A stretch of DNA of 64,000 nucleotides, taken from contig NZ_SRYM01000006.1 in the NCBI RefSeq assembly GCF_004793765.1, positions 1 through 64,000 of the forward strand, written 5' to 3'. The translations under genes and the position numbers were made by a program. Origin of the DNA: Parabacteroides distasonis. Its GTDB lineage: Bacteria > Bacteroidota > Bacteroidia > Bacteroidales > Tannerellaceae. The notes beneath the pieces are model-generated. The model was not told the origin of the DNA and ran no database searches. It saw nothing but the letters and a program-made list of their open reading frames with translations. Shown in pieces: positions 3,587-53,327 of the stretch; position 1 is the stretch's first letter, and each line of letters starts with the position of its first letter.

Positions 3587-3626
3587 AGGACTTCCTAATT
3601 AAGAATTGATAATTGAGTTTTGAAAA

Positions 3627-37613: not shown

Positions 37614-38525
37614 ATGCTTATGCCAGAACTCATATCCATAGAAGAAGCCGCCCGTATTACCGGTTTCCCGTACGAGGAGATTGAAGATTGGGTAAAATCC
37701 CGAAAGATAACCTCTTTCCATACGAGAACCGGTACACGTATGGTAGATATTGGGAACCTACGTGATTTCATAACCCATATCGAACATCTAGGGATTCAAA
37801 AACTATACTTGCAACTGGTCATTCAAGACAAGGAGGAGGAAGCCGACGAGATTATCGCCCAGTACGACGATTACCTTTTCTGCCTACGATCCTTAAAGAA
37901 CATCTCTCCCCTACTTAAACAAATCATCGCCGAACTATCCACATTTATAGATGATAAGCAAGATCGGTATATATTCACGGAAATAACCTCTGGGGCAAAA
38001 ATACTGGACGTAGCCAAACGCTGCGATATATCTTACGATAGGATGTGCTACCGATATAAGAACATAGTACTCCGCTTGCAGGAAAACACCGGATTCTTAG
38101 CCGAATATAAGAAAACGATCAGCTGTCAAGACCTAGAGATAGAGCGCCTGCGGCTTGAGAAGCGAAACATGGAATATGAGCTGAGAACGCTCTATAAAGC
38201 AGTCCTCAAAAGTGGCTTGAGTCTCGATGCTCCGAAATCGTCGTTCGACATCCCCACGGATGCGGCCAGACGGATCTCCCTACCGGTCACAAGCCTAACC
38301 CTGTCTCCCTACATCCGTAAATGCCTCCAAAAATTGGAGCTGGAGACTATGGAGGACCTATTGCGCTACGCTAGGAAGAAAGGGCTCGATTCTTTGTTGA
38401 AGATTCCGGGATTCGGCCCTCTCGGTTTAGACCAGTTAAAATTTCAGCTGGAAAAGCATAAGATCATGAATAAGGCCGGAGACTCGGATCTCTATCAATA
38501 CATCATCAATGAGCCGGATAGCTGA
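37614..38525 (+). CDS. Putative regulator with HTH, sigma-4-like HTH and RNAP alpha-CTD-like domain
   Basis: 303 residues (an ATG at 37620 is an alternative start). Residues 7-53 form an excisionase/MerR-type HTH (ISIEEAARITGFPYEEIEDW). Residues about 130-160 read AKRCDISYDRMCYRYKNIVL, like a region-4 HTH, followed by a coiled coil. Residues about 218-285 read SLPVTSLTLSPYIRKCLQKL, then ETMEDLLRY and LLKIPGFGPLGLDQLKFQLE. This aligns by eye with the C-terminal domain of RNA polymerase alpha. I infer a DNA-binding regulator that mimics alpha-CTD. No match to a named family from memory. Confidence 0.65.
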   Translation: MLMPELISIEEAARITGFPYEEIEDWVKSRKITSFHTRTGTRMVDIGNLRDFITHIEHLGIQKLYLQLVIQDKEEEADEIIAQYDDYLFCLRSLKNISPLLKQIIAELSTFIDDKQDRYIFTEITSGAKILDVAKRCDISYDRMCYRYKNIVLRLQENTGFLAEYKKTISCQDLEIERLRLEKRNMEYELRTLYKAVLKSGLSLDAPKSSFDIPTDAARRISLPVTSLTLSPYIRKCLQKLELETMEDLLRYARKKGLDSLLKIPGFGPLGLDQLKFQLEKHKIMNKAGDSDLYQYIINEPDS

Positions 38526-38529
38526 ACAC

Positions 38530-38563
38530 AAAAAGAGCCTCTCTTCACAGGGAGGCCCTTTTT
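38530..38563 (+). terminator. Terminator of the regulator gene
   Basis: AAAAAGAGCCTC pairs with GAGGCCCTTTTT with one mismatch, then AT. It directly follows the stop at 38525. Between 38564 and 38950 I see no gene. Confidence 0.8.
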
Positions 38564-38953
38564 ATGTGATGCCGGAAATAACCAATAAAAACTTCCCGAC
38601 ACTACGGTGTTAATCATCTTATATGCTTACATAAAATTAGCAGAAGGCTTTGGTTTGCGATATACTAATAGTGTTACATTCTTTTTGACATTGCAAAGAT
38701 ACGTCGGCCTATAAGGGTGCGCAATACCTATATATATGTAAAAAAGGAGAGCTCATACCTATTAATTGTTATATATCTTTTCATGGAGATCGATTTTTAG
38801 AACTAATGATCTTCTCGCTTGTAATAACTAACGCTTACCTCTGAAATAATACAAAACCGTATTTTCCAAAATTAACTATCAAGTTGTCTTGCGGGTCAAT
38901 AATGGGGCCTATTCGGTATGACGTCCTGAAAATATTCTTCCGGGATACCTATG

Positions 38954-38984
38954 AGTAGGTAATTAGGGTCTTATTTTACCTACT
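38954..38984. promoter_or_regulatory. Candidate operator: AGTAGGTAA/TTACCTACT dyad
   Basis: Perfect 9-bp inverted repeat with a 13-base centre, ending 8 bases upstream of the -33 TTG of the operon promoter. The position suits an activator or repressor controlling the 39043-47559 operon, for example the LuxR-type product of its last gene. That link is inference. Confidence 0.5.
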
Positions 38985-38992
38985 TCGGGCGA

Positions 38993-39023
38993 TTGTAGCA
39001 AATTCTCAGCCTCTGTAATTTTG
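38993..39023 (+). promoter_or_regulatory. Promoter of the imelysin/cytochrome operon
   Basis: TTG (38993-38995), 20-base spacer, TAATTTTG (39016-39023). Transcription near 39030 gives a very short leader (about 13 bases) before the ATG at 39043. Confidence 0.8.
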
Positions 39024-39042: not shown

Positions 39043-40356
39043 ATGAGAACGTTAACAAATTTATTAGCGATTGGATTACTTTCCTTTACCGCTCTACATG
39101 CTCAAGAGAGTAATATGAGCTCTACCGTAAAGGCATCGGAGATGTATGCCGACGGTTTTTCTAAATTCCGTTTTGGAGGATATGGTGAGATGGCTGCCAG
39201 TTATATGGATTATGACTGGAATTGGGTGACACCTCAAGGTACATCACATATGAATCGGGCTACTGTCTCTATCCCTCGTTTTATTTTAGCTTTTGATTAT
39301 AAGTTCTCTCCCAAATGGGTACTGAGTTCCGAGATTGAGTTTGAGTATGGAGGAACAGGCGCCGCACGGGAAGTGGAGTGGTACGAGGAGAATGGAGAAT
39401 ATGAGACCGAGATCGAGAAAGGTGGCGAGGTCGCCTTGGAGCAGTTCCATATCTCTTATCTGATGAACAAGCATTTAAACTTCCGTTTTGGACATATGAT
39501 CGTACCGGTAGGCTTGACCAACGCACATCATGAACCCTTGAACTTTTTTGGTGTATATCGTCCGGAAGGAGAGACTACCCTATTACCTTCTACTTGGCAT
39601 GAGACGGGTGTGGCTCTATTTGGTGATTTAGGAAATTTCGATTACGAGTTACAAGTCGTTTCCGGTCTGGACCCACAAGGTTTCCGTATGGAGAACTGGG
39701 TTGGCAAAGGTACGCAAGGCGCTTTCGAGGAAACTCAATTTACGCATCCTGCCTTTGTGGCTCGTGTCAACTATAATGGAGTGAAGAAATTTAAAGGCTT
39801 ACGTGTGGGCGCTTCTTTTTATTATAACCAACCCTCTAAGAATAGTAGCAAACCGCTGCGTAACCAAGGTGAGAAATATCCGCTTACCATCGTGACGGCG
39901 GACGCTCAATATAAAAGTCCGAACAATAATTTGATCGCCAGAGGTAATATCGTTTACGGCCATCTGGGCAACAGCAACGCTCTGACGAAGGTAAACAATA
40001 ACTCATCTTCAGCTTCCGGATATCCTAATTCAACCGTGGCGGAGACCGCTGTCAGTTATGCGGCTGAGGTTGGCTATAATGTAGGTTCCTTTTTTAGTCG
40101 GAAAGCCCCTAGAATTTATCCTTTCGTTCGCTACGAATATTATAATCCGATGCAATCCGTAGAAAAAGGCAGTAATAAACTGGCGGATAGACGTCTTCAA
40201 AAGAGCGTGATTACGGCTGGCCTTAACTATTACGCATTGCCTAATCTGGTCGTAAAGGCGGATTATACGCACCGTATTGTCGGTAAGGGGGATTATAATA
40301 GCCAGAATATGGTTTCTGTCGGTATCGCTTATATCGGCTGGTTCTTATCAAGATAA
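39043..40356 (+). CDS. Outer-membrane porin, OprP/phosphate-porin-like
   Basis: 437 residues. The signal peptide ends near LHAQ (residue 21). The barrel follows with alternating strands (FRFGGYGEMAASYMDYD, FILAFDYKFSPKWVLSSEIE, LNFRFGHMIVPVGLTNAHHE) and a C-terminal strand ending IGWFLSR. Long acidic insert EVEWYEENGEYETEIEKGGE. First gene of the eight-gene operon, so it likely brings the substrate (iron complex or another charged solute) to the periplasmic imelysin and heme proteins. Confidence 0.8.
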   Translation: MRTLTNLLAIGLLSFTALHAQESNMSSTVKASEMYADGFSKFRFGGYGEMAASYMDYDWNWVTPQGTSHMNRATVSIPRFILAFDYKFSPKWVLSSEIEFEYGGTGAAREVEWYEENGEYETEIEKGGEVALEQFHISYLMNKHLNFRFGHMIVPVGLTNAHHEPLNFFGVYRPEGETTLLPSTWHETGVALFGDLGNFDYELQVVSGLDPQGFRMENWVGKGTQGAFEETQFTHPAFVARVNYNGVKKFKGLRVGASFYYNQPSKNSSKPLRNQGEKYPLTIVTADAQYKSPNNNLIARGNIVYGHLGNSNALTKVNNNSSSASGYPNSTVAETAVSYAAEVGYNVGSFFSRKAPRIYPFVRYEYYNPMQSVEKGSNKLADRRLQKSVITAGLNYYALPNLVVKADYTHRIVGKGDYNSQNMVSVGIAYIGWFLSR

Positions 40357-40388
40357 TAGACTATTGACAAATAAATATGTAAGAAAAA

Positions 40389-41600
40389 ATGAAAAAAGTA
40401 CTTTTATTACCCATGATGTTGATGGGTGTGGCTTTGAGCTTCACTTCTTGTGGAGACAACGATGATCCGGGCAAGGACCCCGATGTTGTAACTTATGACT
40501 TTAAGAATCTTCCTGCGGATTCGGGTACAAAACCAACAGAAGATCAGATGAGTGCGGTTGTCGCTACTTTCGTTGATGAGGTAGCTTTGCCTACCTATAA
40601 GGACATGTTGACAAAGATGACCGCCTATAAAAATGCGATAGACAAGTTCATTGCGTCTGGTTCTAAGAATGATTTAGCGGATGCCTGCGACGCTTGGCGT
40701 GCGGTTCGTGTACCTTGGGAACAAAGTGAGGCATTCTTGTTCGGTGTGGCGGATTTGGCACAGCTCGACCCGAGCTTGGATAGCTGGCCTTTGGATAAGA
40801 ACGGTATAGAGGAGATTATAGCTACAGGAGAATTCAGCAAGATTTCAGGAGCTGTAGACGAAGACGCGGAAGATGGTCCTCAAAATTTACGTGGATTCCA
40901 TACGGCGGAAAAGATGTTATTCTTAGACGGCGAGCCTCGTGATCTGGAAACAAGCCCGTTCGCAAAGAATGAATTGGAGTATTTGAAGTTAGTGTCCGAA
41001 CGTATGTTATCTGATACTCAAGACTTATACAATGGTTGGTTGAAAGGCTTAGGAACTTCGGATGTCCCTTCTTCTTATGCGGAGGCTATGAAGAAACATG
41101 ACGGTTCTGCCTATTCCATTGGTAATGTGTATCAGGCGATTGAGCTTATGCTGAATGGAAATAATGGTATGGCTGGAATCTCCAATGAAGTAGGTTCCGC
41201 TAAGATAACTGACCCGGTGACTGCATGGAATGGAAGTAATAAAGACGCTACCGACCCGAATAACCCCGGTGTCTTGGCTGTAGAGTCTTGGTATAGCTGG
41301 AATTCCTTGGACGACTATAAGAACAATATCGTAAGTATCAAGAACGCTTATTTCGGCGGTCGTGATTTGGATGAGGAATCCGCTTCCGAGAGTAGCTTGC
41401 ATGCGTTGACTAAAATGATTAATCCTACGTTGGATAGTTTGATGGTAGTTCAAATTGATAAGACAATCGACGCTATCAATGCGATCGGCTATCCTTTCCG
41501 TAACAATCTAGGGGATACGGAGCATATCAATACGGTTACAGAAGCTTGCGCTGATTTAACGACAGGTTTGGGCGTTGTTAAGTCTAAGTTCACGAACTAA
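40389..41600 (+). CDS. Imelysin family (peptidase M75-like) lipoprotein
   Basis: 403 residues. Lipobox LSFTSC (Cys 21), then acidic linker GDNDDPGKDPD. The imelysin fold has the conserved ACDAWRAVRVPWEQSEAFLF region and the GxHxxE motif as RGFHTAEKMLF (residues about 169-179). Imelysins of the EfeO/IrpA group are implicated in iron uptake and bind metal through this motif. It follows the porin by 32 bases and precedes the di-heme protein by 17. Confidence 0.9.
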   Translation: MKKVLLLPMMLMGVALSFTSCGDNDDPGKDPDVVTYDFKNLPADSGTKPTEDQMSAVVATFVDEVALPTYKDMLTKMTAYKNAIDKFIASGSKNDLADACDAWRAVRVPWEQSEAFLFGVADLAQLDPSLDSWPLDKNGIEEIIATGEFSKISGAVDEDAEDGPQNLRGFHTAEKMLFLDGEPRDLETSPFAKNELEYLKLVSERMLSDTQDLYNGWLKGLGTSDVPSSYAEAMKKHDGSAYSIGNVYQAIELMLNGNNGMAGISNEVGSAKITDPVTAWNGSNKDATDPNNPGVLAVESWYSWNSLDDYKNNIVSIKNAYFGGRDLDEESASESSLHALTKMINPTLDSLMVVQIDKTIDAINAIGYPFRNNLGDTEHINTVTEACADLTTGLGVVKSKFTN

Positions 41601-41617
41601 TCGGACAAGCCGATACG

Positions 41618-43024
41618 ATGAAACGAAGATTACTTCTATTATTCGCTTTATCCGGTAGTCTGCTGTGTAGTTGCGAATCCGAGGACTTGGAAAATTGGCA
41701 GGTTAAGAAACCCAATGGGCAGGTAGCTTCCGAGAAGGAGTTGTCCGCGGGTATCTCAACCATTTTCTCCAATGCCCCGGATGCGTACGATACGCAGGCA
41801 AACTGGGTTACGGGCGAATTAGAGACGCGATTTAATCGTGGTGATGGATTGTACGACGATGCTCGCGGTGTTGAGAATGTGGATGGTGGAGGACTAGGGC
41901 CGCTTTATGCCGGATATTCTTGCGGTTCCTGTCATAAAAGTACCGGGCGGACCCGTCCGGCTATAGCTGATGGAGGTTCCGGCCCCGGCTTCTCATCCAT
42001 GCTTATTTATATATCACGTAAAAGTGGCGGCTATTTTCAAGATTACGGCCGGGTACTACATGATCAAGCGATATACGGAACGAAACCGGAGGGAAGGGTT
42101 AAGATTACTACTACTTCCCAAAAATATACGTTTCCCGATGGGGAGGAATATGAGTTGGTCACTCCTCATTATGAGATAAAAGAATGGTATGCCGATAGTA
42201 TCCCGATGTCGGATTTACGGATTTCCGTACGTCAACCCTTACGGCATGTCGGAATGGGGCAGATGATGGCGCTCGACTTGGATATGCTAAAGCAGATCGC
42301 CGCTAAAAGCAATTATCCGGAATATGGTATTAGTGGACGTATAAACTATGTGACGGAAAAGGGAAAGAAGCAGATCGGTATCTCTGGTAATAAGGCGAAT
42401 CATGCCGACTTAACGGTGGAATTGGGATTCTCTTCCGACCTCGGTGTAACGAACGATCGTTTCCCGCATGAGGTAGGAGAAGGACAGAGTAATATGATGG
42501 GTTTTGCCATGACCGGGGCGCAGGTCTCTACGGAAGATATGGAAGATGTGGATTTATACCTCCAGACCTTGGGGGTACCCGCCCGTCGGAATGTGGATGA
42601 TCCTACGGTTGTTCAAGGAGAGCAACTTTTCTATCAAGCGAAATGTCATTTATGCCATGTGACTTCCTTGAAGACACGCCCTCGCGGATCTGTCCTTTTG
42701 AATAATACGGAATTGCCTCAATTAGGTAATCAGGTGATCCATCCTTATTCGGACTTTTTATTGCATGATATGGGGGTTGAGCTAGGGGATGATTATCCCA
42801 GTGGCTTGGCTAACGGTAATGAATGGAGGACTACCCCGTTATGGGGATTGGGATTACAAGAGGTCGTAAACGGCCATACCTATTATTTACATGATGGCCG
42901 TGCCCGGAACCTGACGGAGGCTATTATGTGGCATGGTGGGGAAGGGGCTGCGTCGCGTACCCTATTCTCTCGTATGACAAAAGACGAGCGGGCCGCTTTG
43001 ATTAAATTCCTACAAAGTTTATGA
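41618..43024 (+). CDS. Di-heme oxidoreductase (DUF1111, MauG/CcpA-like), lipoprotein
   Basis: 468 residues. Lipobox LLCSC at about residue 20. Two heme-c sites CxxCH: CGSCH (about residue 102) and CHLCH (about 342), with candidate distal ligands in LLHDMGVELGDDYPSG and TYYLHDGRARNLTEAI MWH context. Similar proteins sit next to imelysin genes in many bacteria (called thiol oxidoreductases in annotation). Likely role: periplasmic electron transfer or peroxide/iron redox chemistry beside the imelysin. Confidence 0.88.
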   Translation: MKRRLLLLFALSGSLLCSCESEDLENWQVKKPNGQVASEKELSAGISTIFSNAPDAYDTQANWVTGELETRFNRGDGLYDDARGVENVDGGGLGPLYAGYSCGSCHKSTGRTRPAIADGGSGPGFSSMLIYISRKSGGYFQDYGRVLHDQAIYGTKPEGRVKITTTSQKYTFPDGEEYELVTPHYEIKEWYADSIPMSDLRISVRQPLRHVGMGQMMALDLDMLKQIAAKSNYPEYGISGRINYVTEKGKKQIGISGNKANHADLTVELGFSSDLGVTNDRFPHEVGEGQSNMMGFAMTGAQVSTEDMEDVDLYLQTLGVPARRNVDDPTVVQGEQLFYQAKCHLCHVTSLKTRPRGSVLLNNTELPQLGNQVIHPYSDFLLHDMGVELGDDYPSGLANGNEWRTTPLWGLGLQEVVNGHTYYLHDGRARNLTEAIMWHGGEGAASRTLFSRMTKDERAALIKFLQSL

Positions 43025-43046
43025 ATAAATAACGCATAGAATCGAA

Positions 43047-44282
43047 ATGAAAAAAATATATAGGACGTTGCTTGTGGTGCTTCTATCAGCGGGTGTTTTC
43101 TCCGTGAAAGCTCAAGATACAAAGAAAGAGATGGATGATAAATATGTAGAGAACGATGTGGTTTCACTAGCGGGAAAGAAGGGCTTTTCCTTTTCTACCA
43201 AGGCTGGTGACTTTTTGTTTAAGCCCTATGCGTTGGTACAGGCAAGCGCTTGCTACAACCGGTATGACGACCAAGGGCTGGAAAGCCATTATGCCAAGAG
43301 CGTAGCGAACTCTGGTTTCGCGATCCCTAACGCTATTCTCGGTTTTACGGGTAAGGCTTTTGGACGGGTTACTTTCAATTTATCGCTGAATGCCGCTAAG
43401 AGTGGAGGGGCCTTATTGCAACAGGCTTGGTTCGACGTAGCGATCAAGGAATCGTTTCGTATCCGTGTCGGTAAGTTCAAGACACCGTTTATGCATGGCT
43501 ATTTAAGTACTTTGGGGGAGACGTTGTTTCCGGTACTGCCTTATTCCGCTTCCCAATCCGTATTGCTTCCTTACGACGTGAATTATGTTATACCGAATAT
43601 GTCCACGGGATTCGACTTGGGTGTACAGGTACATGGTTTGATCAATGATAAATGGAATTATCAAGTCGGTATTTTTAATGGTACGGGTATCGACGTGAAT
43701 TTGGCGACTAAGACAAACTGCGATGATCATAAATGGTTGCCTTCGCTGTTATATGCGGGTCGTCTGGCCTTTATGCCGAAGGGGGAGATGCCAACGTCTC
43801 AAGGCTCGCCGGAGAATCTGAACGACGATAAGATGTCTATCGCCGTATCTGCCTCTTATAATGCGGAGGCTGAGTTCTTGACCAGTAGCGACACCCGTGT
43901 GGGCGTTGAGTTCGCATGGATCAAGAACCGCTGGTATGTAGCAGCCGAAGGTTATTATATGAATATGCATTTTACCAAGATCATGCAAAAGCCGGATAAG
44001 AATTTCTGGGGAGCTTACGCTCAATTGGGCTATTTCATCACTCCGAAATTACAGGGTGCTTTGCGATATGATTTCTATGATCGAAACGCTACGGATGAGG
44101 GTGGTTTGTTAAATATGCCCGCCGCTGGTTTGAATTATTATTTCTTTAATAATAATTTGAAACTACAGGTTATGTATCAATATTTAGGTCGTAGCGGTCA
44201 TGCTACGCAGAATGACCGGGATGAGGACGCTATTGGATTGGCTCGTCACTCCGCTACGGCTATGTTGCAGTTCACGTTCTAA
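43047..44282 (+). CDS. Outer-membrane porin, OprP/O-like
   Basis: 411 residues, signal peptide (about 1-22, ending VKAQ). Barrel strands with alternating aromatics: GDFLFKPYALVQASACYNRY, FRIRVGKFKTPFMHGYLSTL (a motif typical of phosphate-selective-porin-like proteins), terminal strand LQFTF with the C-terminal Phe needed for BAM recognition. Second porin of the operon, 22 bases after the di-heme gene. Confidence 0.82.
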   Translation: MKKIYRTLLVVLLSAGVFSVKAQDTKKEMDDKYVENDVVSLAGKKGFSFSTKAGDFLFKPYALVQASACYNRYDDQGLESHYAKSVANSGFAIPNAILGFTGKAFGRVTFNLSLNAAKSGGALLQQAWFDVAIKESFRIRVGKFKTPFMHGYLSTLGETLFPVLPYSASQSVLLPYDVNYVIPNMSTGFDLGVQVHGLINDKWNYQVGIFNGTGIDVNLATKTNCDDHKWLPSLLYAGRLAFMPKGEMPTSQGSPENLNDDKMSIAVSASYNAEAEFLTSSDTRVGVEFAWIKNRWYVAAEGYYMNMHFTKIMQKPDKNFWGAYAQLGYFITPKLQGALRYDFYDRNATDEGGLLNMPAAGLNYYFFNNNLKLQVMYQYLGRSGHATQNDRDEDAIGLARHSATAMLQFTF

Positions 44283-44291
44283 TCTTTGGGT

Positions 44292-44999
44292 ATGAAACTA
44301 TATAGTCTATATATAATGTATGCCTTATTCCTGTTATTCGGGCTGGGTTGTGATGAGGGTAAGATTTATCCGGATGAGACGGTTGATTCCGGGCGAACCG
44401 CTACCGTGTCACTTTCTTTCACTGGCCTGAAAGCTTGGCCGAAGGAGAATATGCTCTCGTTATGCGCTTTTGGCGAGGATAAGTCGAAACCTTTGCAAAC
44501 CCAGCGTATCAGTAAGCCGGCGGAAGACGGCAAAAGACTAAAACTCCGATTGAATAATGTCACTCCGGATACGAGGAGTATAGAGGTCGCTGTGATTAGT
44601 AGGGGATTGCGGTTGGTTTACTCCTATTATACGTCTCCGGTGGATGATTCGGACGAACCGCTTGATTTGTCTGTGGGCGAATTGGATTTAGCGAGCTTCA
44701 AACGTGTACAAGCGCAGGTGTTCGACTTGAATTGCCTGTCTTGTCATGGCGGGGGATCGGGATTGGCCGGTCAGCTGGATCTTAGGGACGATGTAGCCTA
44801 TAAATCCTTAGTGAATGTCAAGGCGCCCCTTTCGGAAGAGGGTAAGAACTACGTGACCCCGGGTGATATAAACGATAGTTTCTTGCTGGATATATTGGAG
44901 GATAATCCGGTACATAAGGATATGTTCAATAGTTCCGGGAAACAGGAGGTCCTTGCTTTGATCCAAGGTTGGATCTTAGGAGGGGCATTGGATAATTGA
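44292..44999 (+). CDS. Mono-heme cytochrome c-type lipoprotein
   Basis: 235 residues from the ATG at 44292; an upstream TTG adds two residues only. Lipobox LFGLGC (Cys 18). A beta domain (about 30-125) is followed by a cytochrome c segment with one CxxCH, NCLSCHGGGSGLAGQLDLRD (about residue 148), and a distal Met candidate in VHKDMFN. The layout matches planctomycete-type c cytochrome domains. It could pass electrons to or from the di-heme protein encoded just before. Confidence 0.8.
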   Translation: MKLYSLYIMYALFLLFGLGCDEGKIYPDETVDSGRTATVSLSFTGLKAWPKENMLSLCAFGEDKSKPLQTQRISKPAEDGKRLKLRLNNVTPDTRSIEVAVISRGLRLVYSYYTSPVDDSDEPLDLSVGELDLASFKRVQAQVFDLNCLSCHGGGSGLAGQLDLRDDVAYKSLVNVKAPLSEEGKNYVTPGDINDSFLLDILEDNPVHKDMFNSSGKQEVLALIQGWILGGALDN

Positions 45000-45010
45000 T
45001 AAGAAAGAAA

Positions 45011-46165
45011 ATGATGAATTATACGAGAAAAATAGATACGGATAAAGCGGTAGAGGTTCAGATCTCTTCATTCACGGGCAAAGGTGGAACAACGGAATAT
45101 CAGGTGATGGTATCGATTACAGACCCTTGTTTGTCTTTCGTGGAGCAATTGCAAAACCTTTTGCGGGTTTATGTGACTGTCGTGAAGGAAGAGCTATCGA
45201 ATGACGCTACCGCCGTTTTCCGCCGTTATTTTTTAAGTGACGCGGCTAATCAGACGGATAGCGTGATGGAGTGGGAGTGCGAGAGCGCCTTTTGTCCGCT
45301 CTCTATCGTGCAGCAACCGCCTTTGAATGGAACAAAGATCGCTATGTGGACTTATTTGCAAACGGGCATGTCGGTACAAACGTACGATTCCGGTTTACTG
45401 GAAGCGTCGCATAACGGTTATAGGCACCTCTGGGGGGGAGGTGCCTTCAATAAGGCGGCCAATTCGGAATACCAGACCCGGCTTTTATTGAATGACTATG
45501 TGATGCAATTGATGGGGCAGCGTTGTACGTTGGCCTCTCATTGTGTCCGTACTTGGTTCTTTGTGCAAAACGTAGACGTGAATTACGCCGGTGTGGTGAA
45601 AGCCCGGAAAGAAGTTTTTATCACGCAGAATCTTACGGAGAAGACGCATTATATCGCTAGTACGGGTATCGAGGGACGTCATGCCGATCCCTCGGTGTTG
45701 GTACAGATGGACAGTTATGCGGTGGATGGGTTGGAGCCGGGACAGATTCAGTTCCTTTACGCTCCCACGCACTTGAATCCTACTTATGAATATGGAGTAA
45801 CCTTCGAGCGGGGTACGGCTGTTACGTATGGGGATCGTAAACAGGTCTTCATCTCGGGTACGGCGAGTATAGATAACCGGGGAGAGATTGTCTATCCGGG
45901 CGATATCGTAAAACAAACCGAGCGGATGATGGAAAATATCAGCGTGTTGCTGAAAGAGGCGGACGCTACTACTCGTGATATTACGCAGGCGATCACCTAT
46001 TTGAGAGATATGGCTGATTATGCGGTGGTTAAGAAGTATTTTGAGGCGCATTACCCGGATTTGCCACATTTGATAGTCTTGGCCCCCGTTTGCCGTCCCG
46101 GATGGTTGATAGAGACTGAGTGTATAGCGGTCGTGCCGACGGAGTCGTCCTTTAAGCCTTTGTGA
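45011..46165 (+). CDS. RidA/YjgF-like protein with FkbO/Hyg5 chorismatase-type layout
   Basis: 384 residues from the ATG pair at 45011; the upstream TTG overlaps the previous stop. No signal peptide, so cytosolic. The N-terminal half is unassigned but contains GVVKARKEVFITQ and ASTGIEGRHADPS, like FkbO/Hyg5 chorismatases. The C-terminal third is RidA-like: KQVFISGTASIDNRGEIVYP through PVCRPGWLIETECIAVV with the conserved arginine. The activity could be enamine deamination or chorismate-derived acid formation; not certain. Its place in an iron/heme operon hints at an aromatic ligand, but this is speculation. Confidence 0.65.
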   Translation: MMNYTRKIDTDKAVEVQISSFTGKGGTTEYQVMVSITDPCLSFVEQLQNLLRVYVTVVKEELSNDATAVFRRYFLSDAANQTDSVMEWECESAFCPLSIVQQPPLNGTKIAMWTYLQTGMSVQTYDSGLLEASHNGYRHLWGGGAFNKAANSEYQTRLLLNDYVMQLMGQRCTLASHCVRTWFFVQNVDVNYAGVVKARKEVFITQNLTEKTHYIASTGIEGRHADPSVLVQMDSYAVDGLEPGQIQFLYAPTHLNPTYEYGVTFERGTAVTYGDRKQVFISGTASIDNRGEIVYPGDIVKQTERMMENISVLLKEADATTRDITQAITYLRDMADYAVVKKYFEAHYPDLPHLIVLAPVCRPGWLIETECIAVVPTESSFKPL

Positions 46166-46187
46166 AATAATAATAAATGTACGAGAT

Positions 46188-46937
46188 ATGGAAGAAAAAG
46201 GAGTATATTTGGCTATTCAAACACCAAGACAAGTTAGAAAGAAGCCTATGTATAAAAATGGAATGTACCGGGAAACCGATAAAATGAGTGATCTGATCTG
46301 CGAGAACTATCCGATGGTTTTAGTCATGAGCCGCTTTGGTATAGCGCTCGGGTTCGGAGAGAAGAATATCGGGGAGGTTTGCCGGCAGAATGGGGTGGAT
46401 GCTTGTACTTTCCTGACGGTCGTGAATTTCTTGGTCGAGGAAGTGAATACGCCTGTCGAGAATATCAGCAAATGCCTGTCGATCGAGAACTTGATCCGCT
46501 ATTTGCATAATGCCCATGATTACTTCTTGAACTTCCGCTTGCCACATATCCGTCGTAAATTGGTAGACGCTATATCCGGGTGCCCGGAGGATGTCGCTTT
46601 TGTGATCACGAAGTTTTTCGATGAGTATGCGGAGGAGGTAAATAAACACATGTCTTATGAGGAACGTGCTGTTTTCCCTTATGTCCGTAATTTGTTGGAA
46701 GGAAAGAGAGATCCGAAATACAATATTACGATCTTCCGTAAGCGTCATGATCAGATCGAGATGAAGATCACGGAGTTGAAAAATATCCTGATCAAATACT
46801 ATCCGGGAGCGGGTACGAATATGCTGAATAGTGTCTTGTTCGATATTTTTGCCACGGAGGAAGACTTGGCTTCACATACCCGTGTGGAGGATTATTTGTT
46901 TGTACCGGCCATATTGGCTTTGGAAAAACAATTATAA
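46188..46937 (+). CDS. Hemerythrin-domain protein (RIC/ScdA-like di-iron)
   Basis: 249 residues; a second in-frame ATG (MYKNGMYRETDKMSDLICEN) gives 229. Residues about 35-80 resemble the ScdA N-terminal helical domain (ALGFGEKNIGEVCRQNGVDA). The hemerythrin bundle has metal ligands in LIRYLHNAHDYFLN, LPHIRRKL, NKHMSYEERAVFPY, FRKRHDQIEMK and SHTRVED. Such proteins sense O2 or NO or repair iron-sulfur clusters. It lies immediately before the LuxR-type regulator gene. Confidence 0.85.
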   Translation: MEEKGVYLAIQTPRQVRKKPMYKNGMYRETDKMSDLICENYPMVLVMSRFGIALGFGEKNIGEVCRQNGVDACTFLTVVNFLVEEVNTPVENISKCLSIENLIRYLHNAHDYFLNFRLPHIRRKLVDAISGCPEDVAFVITKFFDEYAEEVNKHMSYEERAVFPYVRNLLEGKRDPKYNITIFRKRHDQIEMKITELKNILIKYYPGAGTNMLNSVLFDIFATEEDLASHTRVEDYLFVPAILALEKQL

Positions 46938-46947
46938 GCATGAATCG

Positions 46948-47559
46948 ATGAGTACAAATCTAAAGATTGCGATAGCCGAACCTTCTGTTATCATAAGGAG
47001 CGGACTGGAGAACCTGTTGAAACGGTTACCGGGTTTCCGTATCCAGATGGTGGAGATTCATTCGGTGGAATCTCTTTTCGACTCGCTTCGTATGCACAAA
47101 CCGGATGTGTTGATCGTGAATCCGGCTTTGCCCGGCTATTTCACGTTGCAACATTTGAAGGAGGAAAGCGGCTGTGCCGAGATGAAATGTATCGCTTTAT
47201 TATATTCTGTCTCAGACAGTGTGTTATTGCGTTCTTATGATGAACAAATTAACATATACGATAGCCCTGATGAGATCAAGCACAAATTGGAACGGTTGAA
47301 CGCCGAGGTACTTCCGGATGACGAGCCGGAAGGGGATGACGAGCAACAATCGTTAAGCTCGAGGGAAAAAGAGATCGTAGTCTGCGTCGTGAAGGGAATG
47401 ACAAACCGGGAGATAGCGGATCGTTTGTTTCTTTCTACGCATACGGTCATCACCCACCGCCGTAATATCGCTCGGAAACTTCAAATTCATAGTGCCAGCG
47501 GTCTTACGATCTATGCGATTGTCAATAAGCTGGTCGAATTAGGCGACATTAAACAGTAA
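46948..47559 (+). CDS. LuxR/NarL-type regulator with atypical receiver domain
   Basis: 204 residues from the ATG at 46948 (the frame opens earlier, inside the hemerythrin gene). Receiver-like domain about 5-110, but the phospho-acceptor position reads LIVNPALPG (Asn 57 instead of Asp), and the first acidic pair is IAEPS, so classical phosphorylation is unlikely. LuxR HTH at about 133-198 (SLSSREKEIVVCVVKGMTNR, STHTVITHRRNIARKL). No sensor kinase in the operon. It probably responds to a ligand or partner, possibly the hemerythrin, and controls the operon. Confidence 0.85.
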   Translation: MSTNLKIAIAEPSVIIRSGLENLLKRLPGFRIQMVEIHSVESLFDSLRMHKPDVLIVNPALPGYFTLQHLKEESGCAEMKCIALLYSVSDSVLLRSYDEQINIYDSPDEIKHKLERLNAEVLPDDEPEGDDEQQSLSSREKEIVVCVVKGMTNREIADRLFLSTHTVITHRRNIARKLQIHSASGLTIYAIVNKLVELGDIKQ

Positions 47560-47580: not shown

Positions 47581-47626
47581 AAAGGGAATGTGGATAAGCG
47601 ATAAAAGCGCCTTCCGCATTCCCTTT
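47581..47626 (+). terminator. Operon terminator
   Basis: 10-bp arms AAAGGGAATG / CATTCCCTTT with a 26-base interior; it follows the regulator stop by 22 bases. No long T run (ACTATTAAT follows). Confidence 0.65.
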
Positions 47627-47730: not shown

Positions 47731-48297
47731 ATGAAGAAAGCATTTTTACTTGGATTAGCATTGTTATTTTCCTTATCTATGAGCGCACAACATTTCGCGT
47801 TGAAGAACAATCTTCTCTACGACGCGACTACGACTCCGAACTTAGGATTCGAGGTGGGCTTAAGCAAAAAGGTTACATTGGATGTCTCGGCGGGATATAA
47901 TCCTTTCAAGTTCAATGACGGTAAGAAACTGAAGCATTGGCTTGTCATGCCGGAAGTGCGTTATTGGACTTGCGAGAAATTCAACGGTACGTTTATTGGC
48001 GTGCATGCGTTGGGCGGACAGTATAATATCGCCGGGATTAAATTACCCTTTGGCATATTCCCTAATTTGAAGGACCATCGTTATGATGGTTATTTGTACG
48101 GTGGCGGACTTACGTTGGGACATCAATGGATACTGAATAAGCGTTGGAGTATAGAAGCCGCTATCGGCGCCGGTTATGCCCGTGTACATTATGATAAGTA
48201 TAATTGCGGGGAATGTGGCTCCAAGATCGAGACCAAGAACTCGAACTATTGGGGTGTAACGAAAGCGGCCCTTTCTATCATTTATTTTATCCACTAA
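47731..48297 (+). CDS. DUF3575 outer-membrane protein
   Basis: 188 residues, signal peptide ending SMSAQ (residue 20). The start of the mature part ALKNNLLYDATTTPNLGFEV is the DUF3575 signature; the C-terminal strand ends IIYFIH. DUF3575 proteins usually sit in fimbria-assembly operons of Bacteroidales next to DUF3868, as here, but no fimbrillin gene follows. One CGECG motif near residue 158. Confidence 0.85.
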   Translation: MKKAFLLGLALLFSLSMSAQHFALKNNLLYDATTTPNLGFEVGLSKKVTLDVSAGYNPFKFNDGKKLKHWLVMPEVRYWTCEKFNGTFIGVHALGGQYNIAGIKLPFGIFPNLKDHRYDGYLYGGGLTLGHQWILNKRWSIEAAIGAGYARVHYDKYNCGECGSKIETKNSNYWGVTKAALSIIYFIH

Positions 48298-48315
48298 AAA
48301 ACGATCTAGAGAGAT

Positions 48316-49764
48316 ATGAGACATTTATTGAGTATATGTATCGCTTTATTGTTCCTCGGAGGTGTGAGCCTACAGGCACAGAACGGTGTGCGGGGAACTG
48401 TTAGTTTCGAGAATGTAAGCGCAAAGAAGGACGGAAGCCAGCTTATGATGAATTTTACGACCAATCTGAGCAATCTGCGTTTGAAATCCCAAGAGATGGT
48501 CATCCTGACACCGGTATTGCAATCGGTGGATAAATCGCAGTCTTACCAGTTTAACCCGATCGTGATTACCGGGCGGGCACGTATGAAGGCGTTGAACCGT
48601 GAGTTGGGTTTCAATAGTTATGAATTTCCCCAAACTCCTAGCTTGATTATCCGTCAGACGAAGAAGGGGCCCGAATTGATTCCGGTGGAGTTGTCCGTGC
48701 CTTATGCGGGATGGATGCGAAACGCTACCTTGATGGTGGATGAGAATACCACGGGATGCGCTTCTTGCGAGGTATCAGATGAAACCTATGGGGTGATGAA
48801 CCGTGTATTGCCTCCGTTGGCTCCTCCCGTTTATGAGCTTAGCTATGTTACTCCTCCGGTAGAACCGGTAAAACAGCGAAGTGAGACGCATTCCGCTTAT
48901 TTGAATTTTGAGGTAGGCAAGTCCGTATTGTTACGTGCTTTCAAGGATAACACTACCGTACTGAATGAGGTGAATAAGATTGTAACGGAAGTCCGTAGCG
49001 ATAAGAATCTTAGTTTTACCGAATTTAAGGTTACCGGATACGCTTCCCCGGAAGGTGGTTACGACTATAATATGAGATTGTCCGAGAGCCGTGCCAAGGC
49101 TTTTGTCGCTTACATGAAAGATAAGGAGAATATAGATCCTTCCTTGATGAAAGTAAATTGGATGGGTGAGGATTGGATCGGGTTGCGTCAAGCGATTATG
49201 AAATCAGATCTAGCGAATAAAAAGGAGATTCTGGAGATCTTGGATATTCAAGATATAAACAAGCGCAAAGCTAAATTGCAAGCCTTGAACGGAGGTCGGA
49301 CGTATAAGATATTATTGGATAAATACTATCCTCCTTTAAGACGCATTGATTATACCTTGGCTTATATCGCACGTCCGTTCGACGTGAACGAGGCTAAGCA
49401 AGTGATCAGAACGAAGCCTCAATATTTAAGTTTGAATGAGATGTTCTTGGTGGCTAATTCCTATGATAAAGGTAGCGATCAGTTCAAGGAGGTATTTGAT
49501 ATCGCTGTTCGTCTTTATCCGAGCGACCCAATCGCTCAATTGAATACGGCGGCTCTTGAGATTGAGACAGGCGCTTACGATCCGGCCATCAGTCGTTTGC
49601 AAGGCATTAATTTGCCGGAAGCATGGAATAACCTAGGTGTCGCTTATGCGATGAAGAAGGATTATACGACCGCTATGCAATATTTCGATCAAGCAGCCCA
49701 AGCCGGCGTGCAGGATGCCGCCGCGAACCGGAATGAACTGACCGCTTGGTTGGCCGAGCAATAA
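48316..49764 (+). CDS. DUF3868/OmpA-like protein with TPR end
   Basis: 482 residues, signal peptide (about 1-22, ending LQAQ). Residues about 25-170 form a DUF3868-type beta domain. Residues about 195-300 are OmpA-like (YLNFEVGKSVLLRAFKDNTT, TEFKVTGYASPEGGYDYNMR, SESRAKAF), and the C-terminus has TPR-type helices (AWNNLGVAYAMKKDYTTAMQ). It probably binds peptidoglycan and supports a surface structure together with the DUF3575 protein 18 bases upstream. Confidence 0.85.
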   Translation: MRHLLSICIALLFLGGVSLQAQNGVRGTVSFENVSAKKDGSQLMMNFTTNLSNLRLKSQEMVILTPVLQSVDKSQSYQFNPIVITGRARMKALNRELGFNSYEFPQTPSLIIRQTKKGPELIPVELSVPYAGWMRNATLMVDENTTGCASCEVSDETYGVMNRVLPPLAPPVYELSYVTPPVEPVKQRSETHSAYLNFEVGKSVLLRAFKDNTTVLNEVNKIVTEVRSDKNLSFTEFKVTGYASPEGGYDYNMRLSESRAKAFVAYMKDKENIDPSLMKVNWMGEDWIGLRQAIMKSDLANKKEILEILDIQDINKRKAKLQALNGGRTYKILLDKYYPPLRRIDYTLAYIARPFDVNEAKQVIRTKPQYLSLNEMFLVANSYDKGSDQFKEVFDIAVRLYPSDPIAQLNTAALEIETGAYDPAISRLQGINLPEAWNNLGVAYAMKKDYTTAMQYFDQAAQAGVQDAAANRNELTAWLAEQ

Positions 49765-51107: not shown

Positions 51108-51136
51108 CGACGCAAATATAGTTTTTATTGTTAGGA

Positions 51137-52423
51137 ATGAAAGTAGGAAAAGTTATAGCGTTCATGCTAGTGCTGCTTCCATTTAGCATGGGAGCGCAGG
51201 AGATGGATCAGCCGGTGGAAAAACGTATCGATTCCTTGGCTACGGAAGTGACTACCTTGGATAAGGTAGTCCGGAAGCTAAGCAAATTCAAGGTTTCCGC
51301 TTATATCCAAGGACAATACCAATATGGACAGCAAGACGCTACCTTGAAAGTGGGCGATAAGAACGAGAACTTGGATAAAGGGTTTAACCGGATCGGTATC
51401 CGCCGGGGGCGTATGAAGTTTGAGTACAATGATGGGATCGGAACAGGTGCTGTCCAGATCGAGGTGAATGATAAGGGAGTAAGTTTCCGTGATCTGTATA
51501 TCGGTATCAAGGATCCTTGGACGAAACGTAGCCAGTTGATGGCTGGTGTGTTCAACCGTCCTTTCGGCTATGAGGTCTGTTATTCTACGAGTGCTCTCGA
51601 ATCTCCGGAGAGAGCGACTATTATCCAGTATTTCTTCCCGGATGAGCGTGACTTGGGAGCGATGCTTACCTTACGTACCCAAACTACCAGCCCATTGAGT
51701 TTCTTGCGATTGGATGCCGGCGTGTTTGCCGGAAACAGTATTAACCGGGAGACGGATAGCCGGAAAGATTTCATCGGGCGTCTGGGTGCCGAGAAGGCGA
51801 TAGGCGACTGGGGAAAATGGGGAGCCGGTTTCTCCTATTACCATGGCTTTGTCTACAACCCGACAACCGAGGCGTATGAGATGCGTGGCAATCATTTCGT
51901 TAAGAGGGATATGGGAGAGACGGGTACTTATATGAAGCGCCAGTATTTAGGTTTGGATGGACAGTTTAGTTTTCTTTCATCTTTAGGAAAGACCACTCTC
52001 CATGCGGAAGGTTTGATCGGTACCCAACCTGGTATCGCCGGAAGCAGTAAAAGCCCGAACTACAGTACCCGACCGGAGAATTTGCCGGAAAATTCTTTGT
52101 TCAAGCGCCCTTTCCTCGGTTACTTCTTTTATTTGGTACAGGATATAGGCACCTCTCCTTTCTCCGCCGTATTGAAATATGACGTTTACGATCCGAATAC
52201 GAAGGTGAGTGGCAATGAGGTCGGGGCGGAAAACAGTTTCACCTCAAAAACCGACTTGGCTCAAAGCACGATAGGTATCGGCGGTATCTATAATTTCAAT
52301 AAACATATCCGTCTACAAGCTTACTACGAGTTTAACTTTAATGAGAAAAGTAACCTCGTGAAGGGCTACGAGAACGACCGGAAGGATAATGTATTGACAG
52401 TCCGTCTTCAATATAAGTTTTAA
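51137..52423 (+). CDS. Phosphate-selective porin O/P-like
   Basis: 428 residues from the ATG at 51137; the TTG at 51128 is less likely. Signal peptide ends SMGAQ; a short coiled-coil (KRIDSLATEVTTLDKVVRKL) precedes the barrel. OprP/O signatures include GFNRIGIRRGRMKFEYNDGI, LMAGVFNRPFGYEVCYSTSA and SPERATIIQYFFPDERDLGA. Terminal strand VRLQYKF. The Pho-box-like promoter and the pstS gene 85 bases downstream point to phosphate uptake through the outer membrane under starvation. Confidence 0.88.
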   Translation: MKVGKVIAFMLVLLPFSMGAQEMDQPVEKRIDSLATEVTTLDKVVRKLSKFKVSAYIQGQYQYGQQDATLKVGDKNENLDKGFNRIGIRRGRMKFEYNDGIGTGAVQIEVNDKGVSFRDLYIGIKDPWTKRSQLMAGVFNRPFGYEVCYSTSALESPERATIIQYFFPDERDLGAMLTLRTQTTSPLSFLRLDAGVFAGNSINRETDSRKDFIGRLGAEKAIGDWGKWGAGFSYYHGFVYNPTTEAYEMRGNHFVKRDMGETGTYMKRQYLGLDGQFSFLSSLGKTTLHAEGLIGTQPGIAGSSKSPNYSTRPENLPENSLFKRPFLGYFFYLVQDIGTSPFSAVLKYDVYDPNTKVSGNEVGAENSFTSKTDLAQSTIGIGGIYNFNKHIRLQAYYEFNFNEKSNLVKGYENDRKDNVLTVRLQYKF

Positions 52424-52433
52424 TTCATAGGAT

Positions 52434-52480
52434 TGTAATATCTGTTTCATCCCATTGAAATACCGAAGTATTTATTTTGT
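52434..52480 (+). promoter_or_regulatory. Pho-box-like array and promoter of pstS
   Basis: TTGTAAT (52434), GTTTCAT (52445) and TTGAAAT (52456), 4-base spacers, then exactly 10 bases to TTATTTTG (52473-52480). Spacing is identical to the array at 51061-51107. The distance from the -7 box to the start codon also matches (29 and 30 bases). Confidence 0.6.
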
Positions 52481-52508
52481 ATCGTAAATAAAAGATAAAT
52501 ACAAAGTA

Positions 52509-53327
52509 ATGAAGAAGACGATTTTATTAGCTGCCATGGCAGCCTGTTTGTTTGCTACGAATGTGTTTGCCCAGAAGATAAAGGGTAGTGATACTTGTTT
52601 GCCTCTTACCCAGACTGAAGCCGAGAATTTCATGAATAAAGACAAAGCCGCTAAGATCACGGTGACGGGTGGTGGCTCCGGCGTGGGGATCTCCGCTTTG
52701 ATGGAAGGTACTACGGATATAGCGATGGCTTCCCGTAAGATGAAATTCGACGAGCGCATGAAGTTGCAAGAAGCCGGGAAGAAGACGAAAGAGGAGGTGA
52801 TCGCCTACGACGCTCTGGCTGTTGTCGTGCATCCTTCCAACAAGGTATCCAATCTGACCCGGGAGCAATTGGAAGGCATTTTTACCGGCAAGATCAAGAA
52901 TTGGAAAGAAGTGGGTGGTACGGATATGAAGATCGTGGCCTATTCCCGCGAGACTTCTTCCGGAACCTACGAGTTCTTCAAGGAGAGCGTATTGAAAAAT
53001 AAGAACTATATGAACGGTATCTTGAGCATGCCGGCTACAGGTTCCATTATCCAAAGCGTGAGCCAGACGAAAGGAGCTATCGGCTATGTGGGTCTCGCTT
53101 ATCTGAACAAAGAGGTGAAGCCGATCCATGTATCGTATGATGCCGGAAAATCCTACGTGGAGCCTTCTTTGGAGAACGCGAGGAATAAGACCTACCCGAT
53201 TGTTCGTCCGTTGTTCTATTACTATGAGACGAAGAATGCCTCAAAAGTGCAACCATTCATTGATTATGTAATGTCGGCCGAAGGGCAAGCGACGGTGAAG
53301 AAGGGCGGTTATGTTCCGGTAAAATAA
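52509..53327 (+). CDS. pstS: Phosphate ABC transporter substrate-binding protein
   Basis: 272 residues, signal peptide (about 1-21, ending VFAQ). PBP-II fold: KIKGSDTCLPLTQTEAENFM, VTGGGSGVGISALMEGTTDI (phosphate-binding GSG), SRETSSGTYEFFKESVL, SVSQTKGAIGYVGLAYLN. Binds phosphate in the periplasm for PstCAB. Those transporter genes are not in this window, so this is an isolated pstS, regulated in parallel with the porin upstream. Confidence 0.9.
   Translation: MKKTILLAAMAACLFATNVFAQKIKGSDTCLPLTQTEAENFMNKDKAAKITVTGGGSGVGISALMEGTTDIAMASRKMKFDERMKLQEAGKKTKEEVIAYDALAVVVHPSNKVSNLTREQLEGIFTGKIKNWKEVGGTDMKIVAYSRETSSGTYEFFKESVLKNKNYMNGILSMPATGSIIQSVSQTKGAIGYVGLAYLNKEVKPIHVSYDAGKSYVEPSLENARNKTYPIVRPLFYYYETKNASKVQPFIDYVMSAEGQATVKKGGYVPVK

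What the first reader, a model, noticed from the sequence alone, without database searches (positions are those of the whole stretch)
39043..47559. Eight-gene envelope operon linking imelysin, heme c proteins, two porins, a RidA/chorismatase-like enzyme, a hemerythrin and an atypical regulator
Seen: eight same-strand genes with gaps of 10-33 bases, one consensus promoter at the front and a terminator at the end. Known: imelysins and DUF1111 di-heme proteins pair in iron-linked loci elsewhere, and hemerythrins sense O2/NO or repair iron centres. Inference: this is one functional module that takes up or handles iron or a redox-active iron ligand at the cell surface and reports to its own regulator. 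The addition of the cytosolic RidA/chorismatase-like enzyme, hemerythrin and kinase-less LuxR protein to the imelysin core is the part I do not know from the literature.
Basis: partly seen in the sequence, partly recalled or inferred. Interest (0 to 1): 0.78.

Follow-up and report, generated by a model that had tools for sequence, protein, structure and literature searches.

The report
Iron-starvation surface operon with its switch
A gut bacterium carries a set of genes that probably handle scarce iron at its surface, and the DNA beside it points to a shared on-switch, perhaps an iron-sensing protein, and to a small RNA; how these bacteria sense iron is an open question that this makes testable.

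Summary
The eight-gene operon is real and not strain-specific. Porin-imelysin-DHOR order holds in 34 of 38 loci examined from an order-wide sample; porin2, cytochrome, chorismatase-fold gene, hemerythrin and LuxR are lineage-dependent additions. The 'RidA' protein has a full-length chorismatase fold. The LuxR receiver lacks its phospho-acceptor in 25 of 25 rows; hemerythrin and LuxR are one fused protein in 10 loci. Known already: B. thetaiotaomicron BT2473-BT2482, evidently the same operon, rises 63-324-fold in low iron and 14-33-fold in colitis, and hemerythrin-CdhR is an iron-regulated pair (PMC10434189). New here: (1) an operator TACCTA-N4-TAGGTA abutting the -33 element, upstream of porA in 23/71 versus 31/6057 background tiles; its half-sites precede 25/36 stand-alone hemerythrin genes but 0/17 inside the operon. 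The same promoter precedes FeoAB, flavodoxin and ZIP genes in relatives; (2) a Parabacteroides RNA gene divergent from porA, compensatory changes in 15 of 22 pairs, this promoter directly upstream in 24 of 27 copies. Best reading: an iron-starvation module under a hemerythrin-LuxR switch. Binding, signal, RNA targets and enzyme chemistry are untested.

The parts
38519..38693 (-). predicted small RNA gene, ending in a hairpin at 38537-38556 that also lies downstream of the preceding gene
   Evidence: CM R1 built from 16 copies; 15 of 22 pairs with compensatory changes; 27 copies at E < 1e-10 in 22 of 25 same-genus genomes. No expression data.
38694..38730 (-). composite promoter of the RNA gene: TAGGTATTG-N20-TATCTTTG
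   Evidence: one of only two exact matches in the own genome; directly upstream of 24 of 27 RNA copies
38725..38740 (-). operator of the RNA promoter, TACATATATATAGGTA (one mismatch)
38946..38961 (.). perfect operator TACCTATGAGTAGGTA, 7-2-7 inverted repeat
   Evidence: only exact match in the 4.2 Mb own genome; class enriched upstream of porA
38977..38992 (+). half-degenerate operator TACCTACTTCGGGCGA abutting the -33 TTG, 31 bp from the perfect site
   Evidence: sequence; spacing as in relatives
39016..39023 (+). -7 box TAATTTTG of the operon promoter
39043..40356 (+). porA, outer-membrane porin (Porin_O_P-like)
   Evidence: just below cut-off; orthologues at the head of the operon
40389..41600 (+). 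imelysin / M75 lipoprotein with GxHxxE (GFHTAE)
   Evidence: very close to PDB 4ecg (E 9e-256)
41618..43024 (+). DHOR/DUF1111 di-heme lipoprotein, CGSCH and CHLCH
43047..44282 (+). porB, Porin_O_P porin
   Evidence: E 1.8e-43
44292..44999 (+). mono-heme cytochrome lipoprotein (CLSCH), N-terminal beta domain of no clear known fold
   Evidence: one CxxCH in 51 of 51; model pLDDT 88.6, no PDB match at E <= 0.001
   Evidence: model pLDDT 94.8; best PDB matches 5a3k, 5ag3, 4bps over 340-344 columns
46188..46937 (+). RIC-like hemerythrin-domain protein (PG1236/BT0519 type)
   Evidence: invariant H110, H154, E158, H230, E234 in 22 rows
46948..47559 (+). LuxR/NarL-type regulator with pseudo-receiver (CdhR type)
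47581..47626 (+). inverted repeat after the operon, terminator-like
   Evidence: sequence; not listed by the scan

Best explanation
An iron-starvation response module of Bacteroidales. SHOWN: gene order, heme sites and lipoprotein-type signals, predicted chorismatase fold, the conserved operator-promoter, and the conserved RNA gene. SHOWN BY OTHERS: strong induction by low iron and in colitis of the B. thetaiotaomicron counterparts of the operon and of hemerythrin-LuxR. INFERRED: the hemerythrin protein senses iron (possibly with O2 or NO) through its di-iron site and controls its LuxR partner, which lacks the phospho-acceptor; when the site empties the LuxR partner activates promoters by binding TACCTA-N4-TAGGTA next to the -33 element. 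This turns on (i) the surface operon, where imelysin holds an iron-bearing ligand, the di-heme and mono-heme lipoproteins do the redox step that loosens iron, and the two porins pass the product inward, with FeoAB (same promoter in some genomes) as the inner-membrane importer; (ii) the regulator itself; (iii) in Parabacteroides a small RNA that probably spares iron by silencing iron-using enzymes. The chorismatase-fold protein probably makes a chorismate-derived aromatic acid used as ligand or reductant; this is the weakest step.
For: Order conservation. Heme motifs: cytc 51 of 51, DHOR two motifs in 76 of 83. Lipobox-like Cys with at least 2 acidic residues in the next 6: imelysin 56 of 76, DHOR 61 of 83, cytc 41 of 51, porins 1 of 126. 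CcsBA in the same stretch in 24 of the 38 order-sample loci; a Cytochrom_C_asm ORF elsewhere in the own genome. Operator: TACCTA is the hexamer with the largest excess upstream of porA (55 of 71, background 9.9%); palindrome 23/71 against 31/6057, reversed control 0/71 and 12/6057 (Fisher p 5e-32); gap to the -7 box 20 bp in 29 of 30. In 40 fetched composite sites the left TAC, which the search did not fix and its output did not show, stands at the symmetric offset in 23. Half-sites before stand-alone hemerythrin 25/36, in-operon 0/17. Genes behind the promoter: FeoAB x2, FeoB, flavodoxin, ZIP, CDF, TonB receptors, hemerythrin x4, porA. Fusions in 10 loci. Literature induction. RNA gene.
Against: No direct binding or iron-sensing data; [quoted passage not shown] 48 of 71 porA upstreams lack the palindrome; only 2 of 36 stand-alone hemerythrin genes have it and 11 of 36 lack even a half-site, where about one in ten background tiles has one. 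15 of 38 fetched promoter sites with a gene behind them precede genes without a clear iron link, and no functional background was run; TonB receptors are common in this order (recalled). The reversed composite pattern gave 37 places against 147 (my sums). Only 6 of 40 hmuY upstreams carry the composite (reversed control 1 of 40), although hmu is the known CdhR target. Chorismatase-like genes outside the operon mostly lack a site. Hemerythrin homologues occur in many genomes without the operon. A Fur-family ORF is present. Two imelysin-like proteins did not bind heme or Fe3+. L002, the closest relative, lacks the RNA.
Confidence: 0.6

Rival explanations
1. The operator belongs to another regulator (a Fur-family protein or an unknown one), and hemerythrin-LuxR is only one of its targets.
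For: The own genome has one Fur-family ORF. Being a target also explains half-sites before stand-alone hemerythrin genes. P. gingivalis Fur affects gene expression in low iron and heme (PMC6613475, passages).
Against: The site has the 7-2-7 inverted-repeat geometry typical of NarL/LuxR proteins (recalled), not of a Fur box (recalled). The abstract of PMC6613475 says PgFur binds neither the canonical E. coli Fur box nor iron. CdhR is described as the hmu activator (PMC10101095, passages).
Confidence: 0.22
2. A nitrosative/oxidative defence module: the hemerythrin is a RIC-type sensor or repair protein and the DHOR is a surface peroxidase.
For: TIGR03652 hit over residues 57-239; RIC proteins respond to NO and ROS (PMC9268430, passages); cdhR is lowered under microaerophilic conditions.
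Against: TIGR03652 cut-off not met (53 against 204.7). Among the 20 genes behind the shared promoter that were scanned, metal-transport and TonB genes and a flavodoxin appear and no NO or peroxide defence family. The strongest published induction that I saw is by low iron.
Confidence: 0.18
3. A porin-cytochrome conduit that passes electrons to outside acceptors, induced in low iron because insoluble ferric iron is the acceptor.
For: Two porins, three c-heme motifs, surface-type signals, CcsBA in many loci.
Against: Three hemes are few to span an outer membrane (recalled: known conduits carry about ten). Imelysin and the chorismatase-fold protein have no role in such conduits that I know of.
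Confidence: 0.15
4. Unrelated envelope genes that share a promoter by chance.
For: Composition varies by lineage.
Against: Core order in 34 of 38 order-sample loci; porB-cytc coupling in 45 loci; co-induction in B. thetaiotaomicron.
Confidence: 0.01

Closest known systems
B. thetaiotaomicron BT2473-BT2482 (iron- and colitis-induced locus, PMC10434189)
   Same: Peptidase M75, thiol oxidoreductase, porin, hypotheticals and CcsA in a row; by order and names evidently the homologous operon (its sequence was not compared here).
   Different: There CcsA and a fimbrillin are part of the locus and hemerythrin-LuxR (BT0519-0520) is elsewhere; here both regulator genes close the operon. In that paper the words 'motif' and 'regulon' were not found.
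Hemerythrin-CdhR pair (PG1236-PG1237; BT0519-0520; fused in P. intermedia)
   Same: Same two kinds of gene, same fusion, iron-regulated.
   Different: The operator, its autoregulatory pattern, the promoter link to this operon and the RNA are not in the passages I read.
Imelysin-DUF1111 iron loci (P. aeruginosa PA4370-PA4373, EfeUOB; Xu 2011, PMC3143127)
   Same: Imelysin beside a DUF1111 di-heme protein, iron-linked; BDI2603 itself is named there.
   Different: No EfeU permease gene in the operon; two porins, extra cytochrome, chorismatase-fold enzyme and hemerythrin-LuxR; operator unlike a Fur box (recalled).
Chorismatases FkbO/Hyg5 (PDB 4bps, 5a3k, 5ag3)
   Same: Full-length fold; SGTAS, YxR and CR..LxExE stretches shared with 5ag3.
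   Different: 15-20% identity; TIGR04444 33.6 bits against a 325 cut-off; no polyketide context seen.
RyhB/PrrF-type iron-sparing RNAs (recalled)
   Same: Iron-type promoter, unpaired conserved stretch, terminator, tandem copies in some genomes.
   Different: No Rfam family reached its gathering score; targets and expression unknown.

Membership tests
Imelysin (IrpA family) | M75 domain with GxHxxE | tested here: met
   PF09375 E 4e-67; motif in 38 of 38 canonical and 36 of 38 permuted members
Imelysin-DUF1111 iron operon | DUF1111 partner next to imelysin | tested here: met
   67 of 69 loci with room
Imelysin-DUF1111 iron operon | Induction by iron limitation | not testable with these tools
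   reported for the B. thetaiotaomicron counterpart; not measured in this organism
EfeUOB | EfeU permease and CUP-domain EfeO | tested here: not met
   no such gene among the eight; EfeO model 21 bits against 270
Two-component response regulator | Phospho-acceptor Asp in the receiver | tested here: not met
   N in 23, C in 1, S in 1 of 25 rows (the row L049, an unrelated LuxR protein, was left out)
Hemerythrin-CdhR regulator | RIC-like hemerythrin gene followed by a LuxR gene, or one fused protein | tested here: met
Hemerythrin-CdhR regulator | Activates iron/heme genes by binding DNA | not testable with these tools
   operator inferred; binding not tested
RIC / YtfE iron-centre repair protein | Curated model cut-off and di-iron ligands | tested here: inconclusive
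   TIGR03652 53 of 204.7 bits; candidate His/Glu ligands invariant
Chorismatase FkbO/Hyg5 | Chorismatase fold | tested here: met
   TM 0.62-0.64 on the query over 340-344 columns, predicted model
Chorismatase FkbO/Hyg5 | Curated subfamily cut-off | tested here: not met
   33.6 against 325 bits
Chorismatase FkbO/Hyg5 | Chorismate turnover | not testable with these tools
   needs enzyme assay
RidA imine hydrolase | Free-standing single-domain Rid protein | tested here: not met
   Rid domain only at 276-375; whole chain is chorismatase-like
Rfam BTnc231 | Gathering score 80.4 | tested here: not met
   20.7 bits, E 0.11

The most novel reading that the evidence does not exclude
Hemerythrin-LuxR is the general iron sensor of Bacteroidales, a bacterial parallel to the hemerythrin iron sensors of animals and plants: apo-hemerythrin switches on a 7-2-7 operator regulon comprising the surface heme-c/imelysin system, FeoAB, flavodoxin and metal transporters, with a Parabacteroides iron-sparing RNA as its second arm.
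Probability: 0.45. Interest if true: 0.85.

Novelty: new variant of a known kind. Interest (0 to 1): 0.66.

Why it matters
How Bacteroidales sense iron is open: PgFur is reported to bind neither iron nor the canonical Fur box (PMC6613475, abstract), and CdhR is not yet shown to bind iron (PMC10434189, passage). A concrete operator, its geometry and a predicted regulon make that question testable with one binding assay and one deletion. The operon's B. thetaiotaomicron counterpart is raised 14-33-fold in colitis, so its chemistry bears on how gut symbionts persist in inflammation. The RNA gene would be an iron-linked regulatory RNA of a gut symbiont that no Rfam family covers at its gathering score.

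Tried and rejected
Generic sigma-70 and terminator scan: no better than shuffles, so dropped for Bacteroides-type boxes. DHOR against PDB sequences: no match. Cytochrome model against PDB: no match at E <= 0.001; the top listed chains are chance-level. Rfam: only sub-threshold hits. RNA model outside the family: only weak hits (E 3e-4 or worse; 0.09 or worse in non-Parabacteroides loci), not counted as homologues. hmuY as a general target of the operator: only 6 of 40. Chorismatase-like genes outside the operon as direct targets: half-sites before 2 of 22 copies looked at (some of the 22, such as L033 and L035, lie in operons); L172 is an exception, a chorismatase-like gene behind a perfect site. 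The exact palindrome alone: one per 4.2 Mb is not remarkable by itself (about 0.25 expected by equal base count), so the case rests on position and conservation. The idea that chorismatase-like, hemerythrin and LuxR genes form the core was rejected by the order-wide sample.

Caveats on samples: L002-L050 were found through the chorismatase-like gene, so its share among them is biased, and the all-loci counts mix them with the order sample. Of the 40 DHOR genomes two (G109, G286) were not fetched; among the 38 examined L061 and L087 are cut by contig ends, L059 has a porA fragment and no imelysin, L051 has neither. L001 (a piece of the window) was left out of the scripts. The porA upstream set holds 71 sequences, the window among them, out of 77 porA ORFs plus the window, because short or contig-end cases were left out. 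The 40 composite sites fetched are a choice from 147 places (my sum), favouring genomes with the system or several sites, made before seeing genes or left halves; one of them (L170) is the porA promoter of L083 and had been printed. hmuY: the 40 upstreams are of 55 places listed. Stand-alone means not preceded by the chorismatase-like gene on the same strand within 900 bases; its count accepts TACCTA, TAGGTA or GGGTATTG within 300 bases. The RNA model was built from loci that may belong to the same species as some genomes, so the 27 copies are not independent.


Full report
OBSERVATION. The imelysin is very close to PDB 4ecg (E 9e-256). The genus is Parabacteroides by its nearest loci; P. distasonis is my inference from 4ecg (species recalled) and the BDI2603 mention in PMC3143127 (passages and one section read).

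CONSERVATION. One genome-contig scan with the chorismatase-like protein gave 49 loci. Parabacteroides, Bacteroides and some Prevotellaceae share porA-imelysin-DHOR-porB-cytc-chorismatase. In most Bacteroides loci the next gene is CcsBA (family F5 in 30 of 49 loci; Cytochrom_C_asm plus ResB), and in many hemerythrin-LuxR lies on the other strand nearby. In an order-wide sample DHOR occurs in 40 of 295 genomes, the chorismatase-like gene in 25 and hemerythrin homologues in 196. Of 38 DHOR genomes examined (window plus L051-L087) 34 have porA-imelysin-DHOR in order, 24 have CcsBA in the locus, and 10 have hemerythrin-LuxR in the fetched stretch. Over all 69 loci with room the pair porA-imelysin is upstream of DHOR in 67. 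porB and cytc are both present in 45 of 63 loci with room and never apart there; L057, cut by its contig end and outside that count, has cytc alone. So the core is porin-imelysin-DHOR, often with CcsBA, and the window shows one of the fullest versions. Imelysin exists in canonical and circularly permuted forms here, as already reported for Bacteroidales.

SURFACE AND HEME. DHOR has two CxxCH in 76 of 83 and the cytochrome one in 51 of 51. Lipobox-like Cys followed by at least two acidic residues in the next six: imelysin 56 of 76, DHOR 61 of 83, cytochrome 41 of 51, porins 1 of 126. This resembles the Bacteroidota surface-export signal (recalled). Supporting literature: the BT_2479 peptidase (the imelysin) was found in culture supernatant and its mutant kept the EspB-cleaving activity (PMC6282197, one passage); its signal peptide is used to direct cargo to outer membrane vesicles (PMC13192842, passages).

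REGULATOR. The receiver of the LuxR protein has N, C or S in place of the phospho-acceptor Asp in all 25 rows compared. In 10 loci one protein carries both the hemerythrin domain and the LuxR HTH, without the pseudo-receiver in the ten fused rows aligned, which argues that the two gene products act together. H110, H154, E158, H230 and E234 are invariant over 22 sequences. PMC10434189 (abstract and passages) already identifies this pair as PG1236-PG1237 (CdhR) and BT0519-0520 and the P. [quoted passage not shown]

OPERATOR. TACCTA/TAGGTA is the hexamer with the largest excess in 320 bp upstream of porA: 55 of 71, against 9.9% of background tiles. Pairs recur at 10, 21, 31-32 and 41-42 bp. The palindrome TACYNA-N4-TNRGTA is in 23 of 71 upstreams against 31 of 6057 tiles; its reversed control is in 0 of 71 and 12 of 6057. 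Where RGTATTG occurs upstream of porA, the left TAC is at the symmetric offset in 23 of 41, and the gap to a TAnnTTTG box is exactly 20 bp in 29 of 30. The right half therefore abuts the -33 TTG, a position usual for an activator (recalled). In the window the perfect site is 38946-38961, the only exact copy in the own genome, and a half-degenerate copy 31 bp downstream touches the -33 element. Hemerythrin genes transcribed on their own carry a half-site within 300 bp in 25 of 36 cases, hemerythrin genes inside the operon in 0 of 17, which fits autoregulation; the strict palindrome is in only 2 of those 36.

REGULON. The exact composite TAGGTATTG-N17-23-TANNTTTG was searched in 295 genomes (101 genomes with a match, 147 places against 37 for the reversed pattern, both by my sums of that table). 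I fetched 40 of these sites. Their left halves, not part of the search, show TAC at the symmetric offset in 23 of 40. In 38 of the 40 an ORF of 80 aa or more starts within 900 bases. By my tally 20 of the 38 are metal, TonB, flavodoxin, hemerythrin or porA genes or lie directly before hmuY: FeoAB (L175, L186), FeoB (L181), flavodoxin (L185), ZIP (L160), CDF (L162, named by 69% identity to the scanned L159), TonB-receptor types (L156 in the own genome, L161, L174, L176, L178, L180, L193), porA (L170), hemerythrin (L184, L188, L189, L195), and L163 and L177 before hmuY places. Three are LCM methyltransferases 697-845 bases away (L164, L168, L171; only L171 was scanned). Fifteen have no clear iron link (L158, L159, L165-L167, L169, L172, L173, L179, L182, L183, L187, L191, L192, L194); the L159 promoter belongs to the RNA gene, and L172 is a chorismatase-like gene. 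L157 (an RNA promoter) and L190 had no ORF. These classes overlap the published low-iron stimulon: flavodoxin, hemerythrin-LuxR, SAM methyltransferase, FeoB and BT2473-2482. hmuY, the known CdhR target, carries the composite in only 6 of 40 upstreams.

RNA GENE. On the minus strand facing away from porA the same composite promoter (38694-38730) is followed by a conserved stretch that ends in a terminator hairpin. Sixteen copies from Parabacteroides loci align (A4); the consensus has two hairpins with compensatory changes in 15 of 22 pairs and an unpaired, conserved 5' part. The covariance model finds 27 copies at E < 1e-10 in 22 of 25 same-genus genomes, five of them with tandem copies. In 24 of the 27 the exact composite promoter ends at the RNA start, within three bases; G299, G300 and G304 are the exceptions. 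In G205 and G289 the RNA lies next to hemerythrin. Convincing copies were not found outside the family (stricter filters in 91). L002, the closest relative, has none. Rfam gives only a sub-threshold BTnc231 hit; BTnc231 itself is a Northern-validated B. thetaiotaomicron RNA (PMC7366714, passage).

MECHANISM AND LIMITS. Taken with the published induction (BT2473-2482 63-324-fold in low iron, 14-33-fold in colitis), the best reading is an iron-starvation surface module under a hemerythrin-LuxR switch. Iron sensing by hemerythrin, activation by the apo form, redox release of iron at the surface, the product of the chorismatase-fold protein and the role of the RNA are inference. Against direct iron binding by imelysin stands the thermofluor result of Xu 2011. 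Literature searches were limited to in an open-access library; key older papers on CdhR (Wu 2009, Chawla 2010) were not read, so a published CdhR site cannot be excluded.

Noticed in passing
37614-38525 (+): Gene before the operon: HTH_17 start plus a C-terminal domain like the RNA polymerase alpha CTD (both below cut-off); its terminator hairpin also ends the predicted RNA on the other strand.
   Followed up: no
47731-49764 (+): DUF3575 and DUF3868/OmpA genes follow luxR; the same order follows the second regulator copy in L006 and L009. In B. thetaiotaomicron a fimbrillin is part of the iron-induced locus.
   Followed up: partly
L005-L009 and L058, after the first luxR: A second chorismatase-like gene (60-62% identity in L005-L009), with a second hemerythrin-LuxR pair in L005-L009, follows the operon in several Parabacteroides.
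   Followed up: partly
L043-L045: Two tandem chorismatase-like genes near CcsBA in Hallella/Prevotella.
   Followed up: no
L031, L032, L034: The chorismatase-like gene also sits beside SusCD-like, DUF4369 and DUF6057 genes and a PD40 protein carrying CxxCH (SusCD by own reading).
   Followed up: partly
L042:4751-11131: A Verrucomicrobiales homologue follows DUF1549/DUF1553, DUF1501 and PPC-domain genes.
   Followed up: no
2435-5183 (-): Two genes that look like cytochrome bd oxidase subunits (own reading of the translations, no family search).
   Followed up: no
51128-53327 (+): A further Porin_O_P-like porin followed by a PstS-like phosphate-binding protein (porin, PstS by own reading).
   Followed up: no
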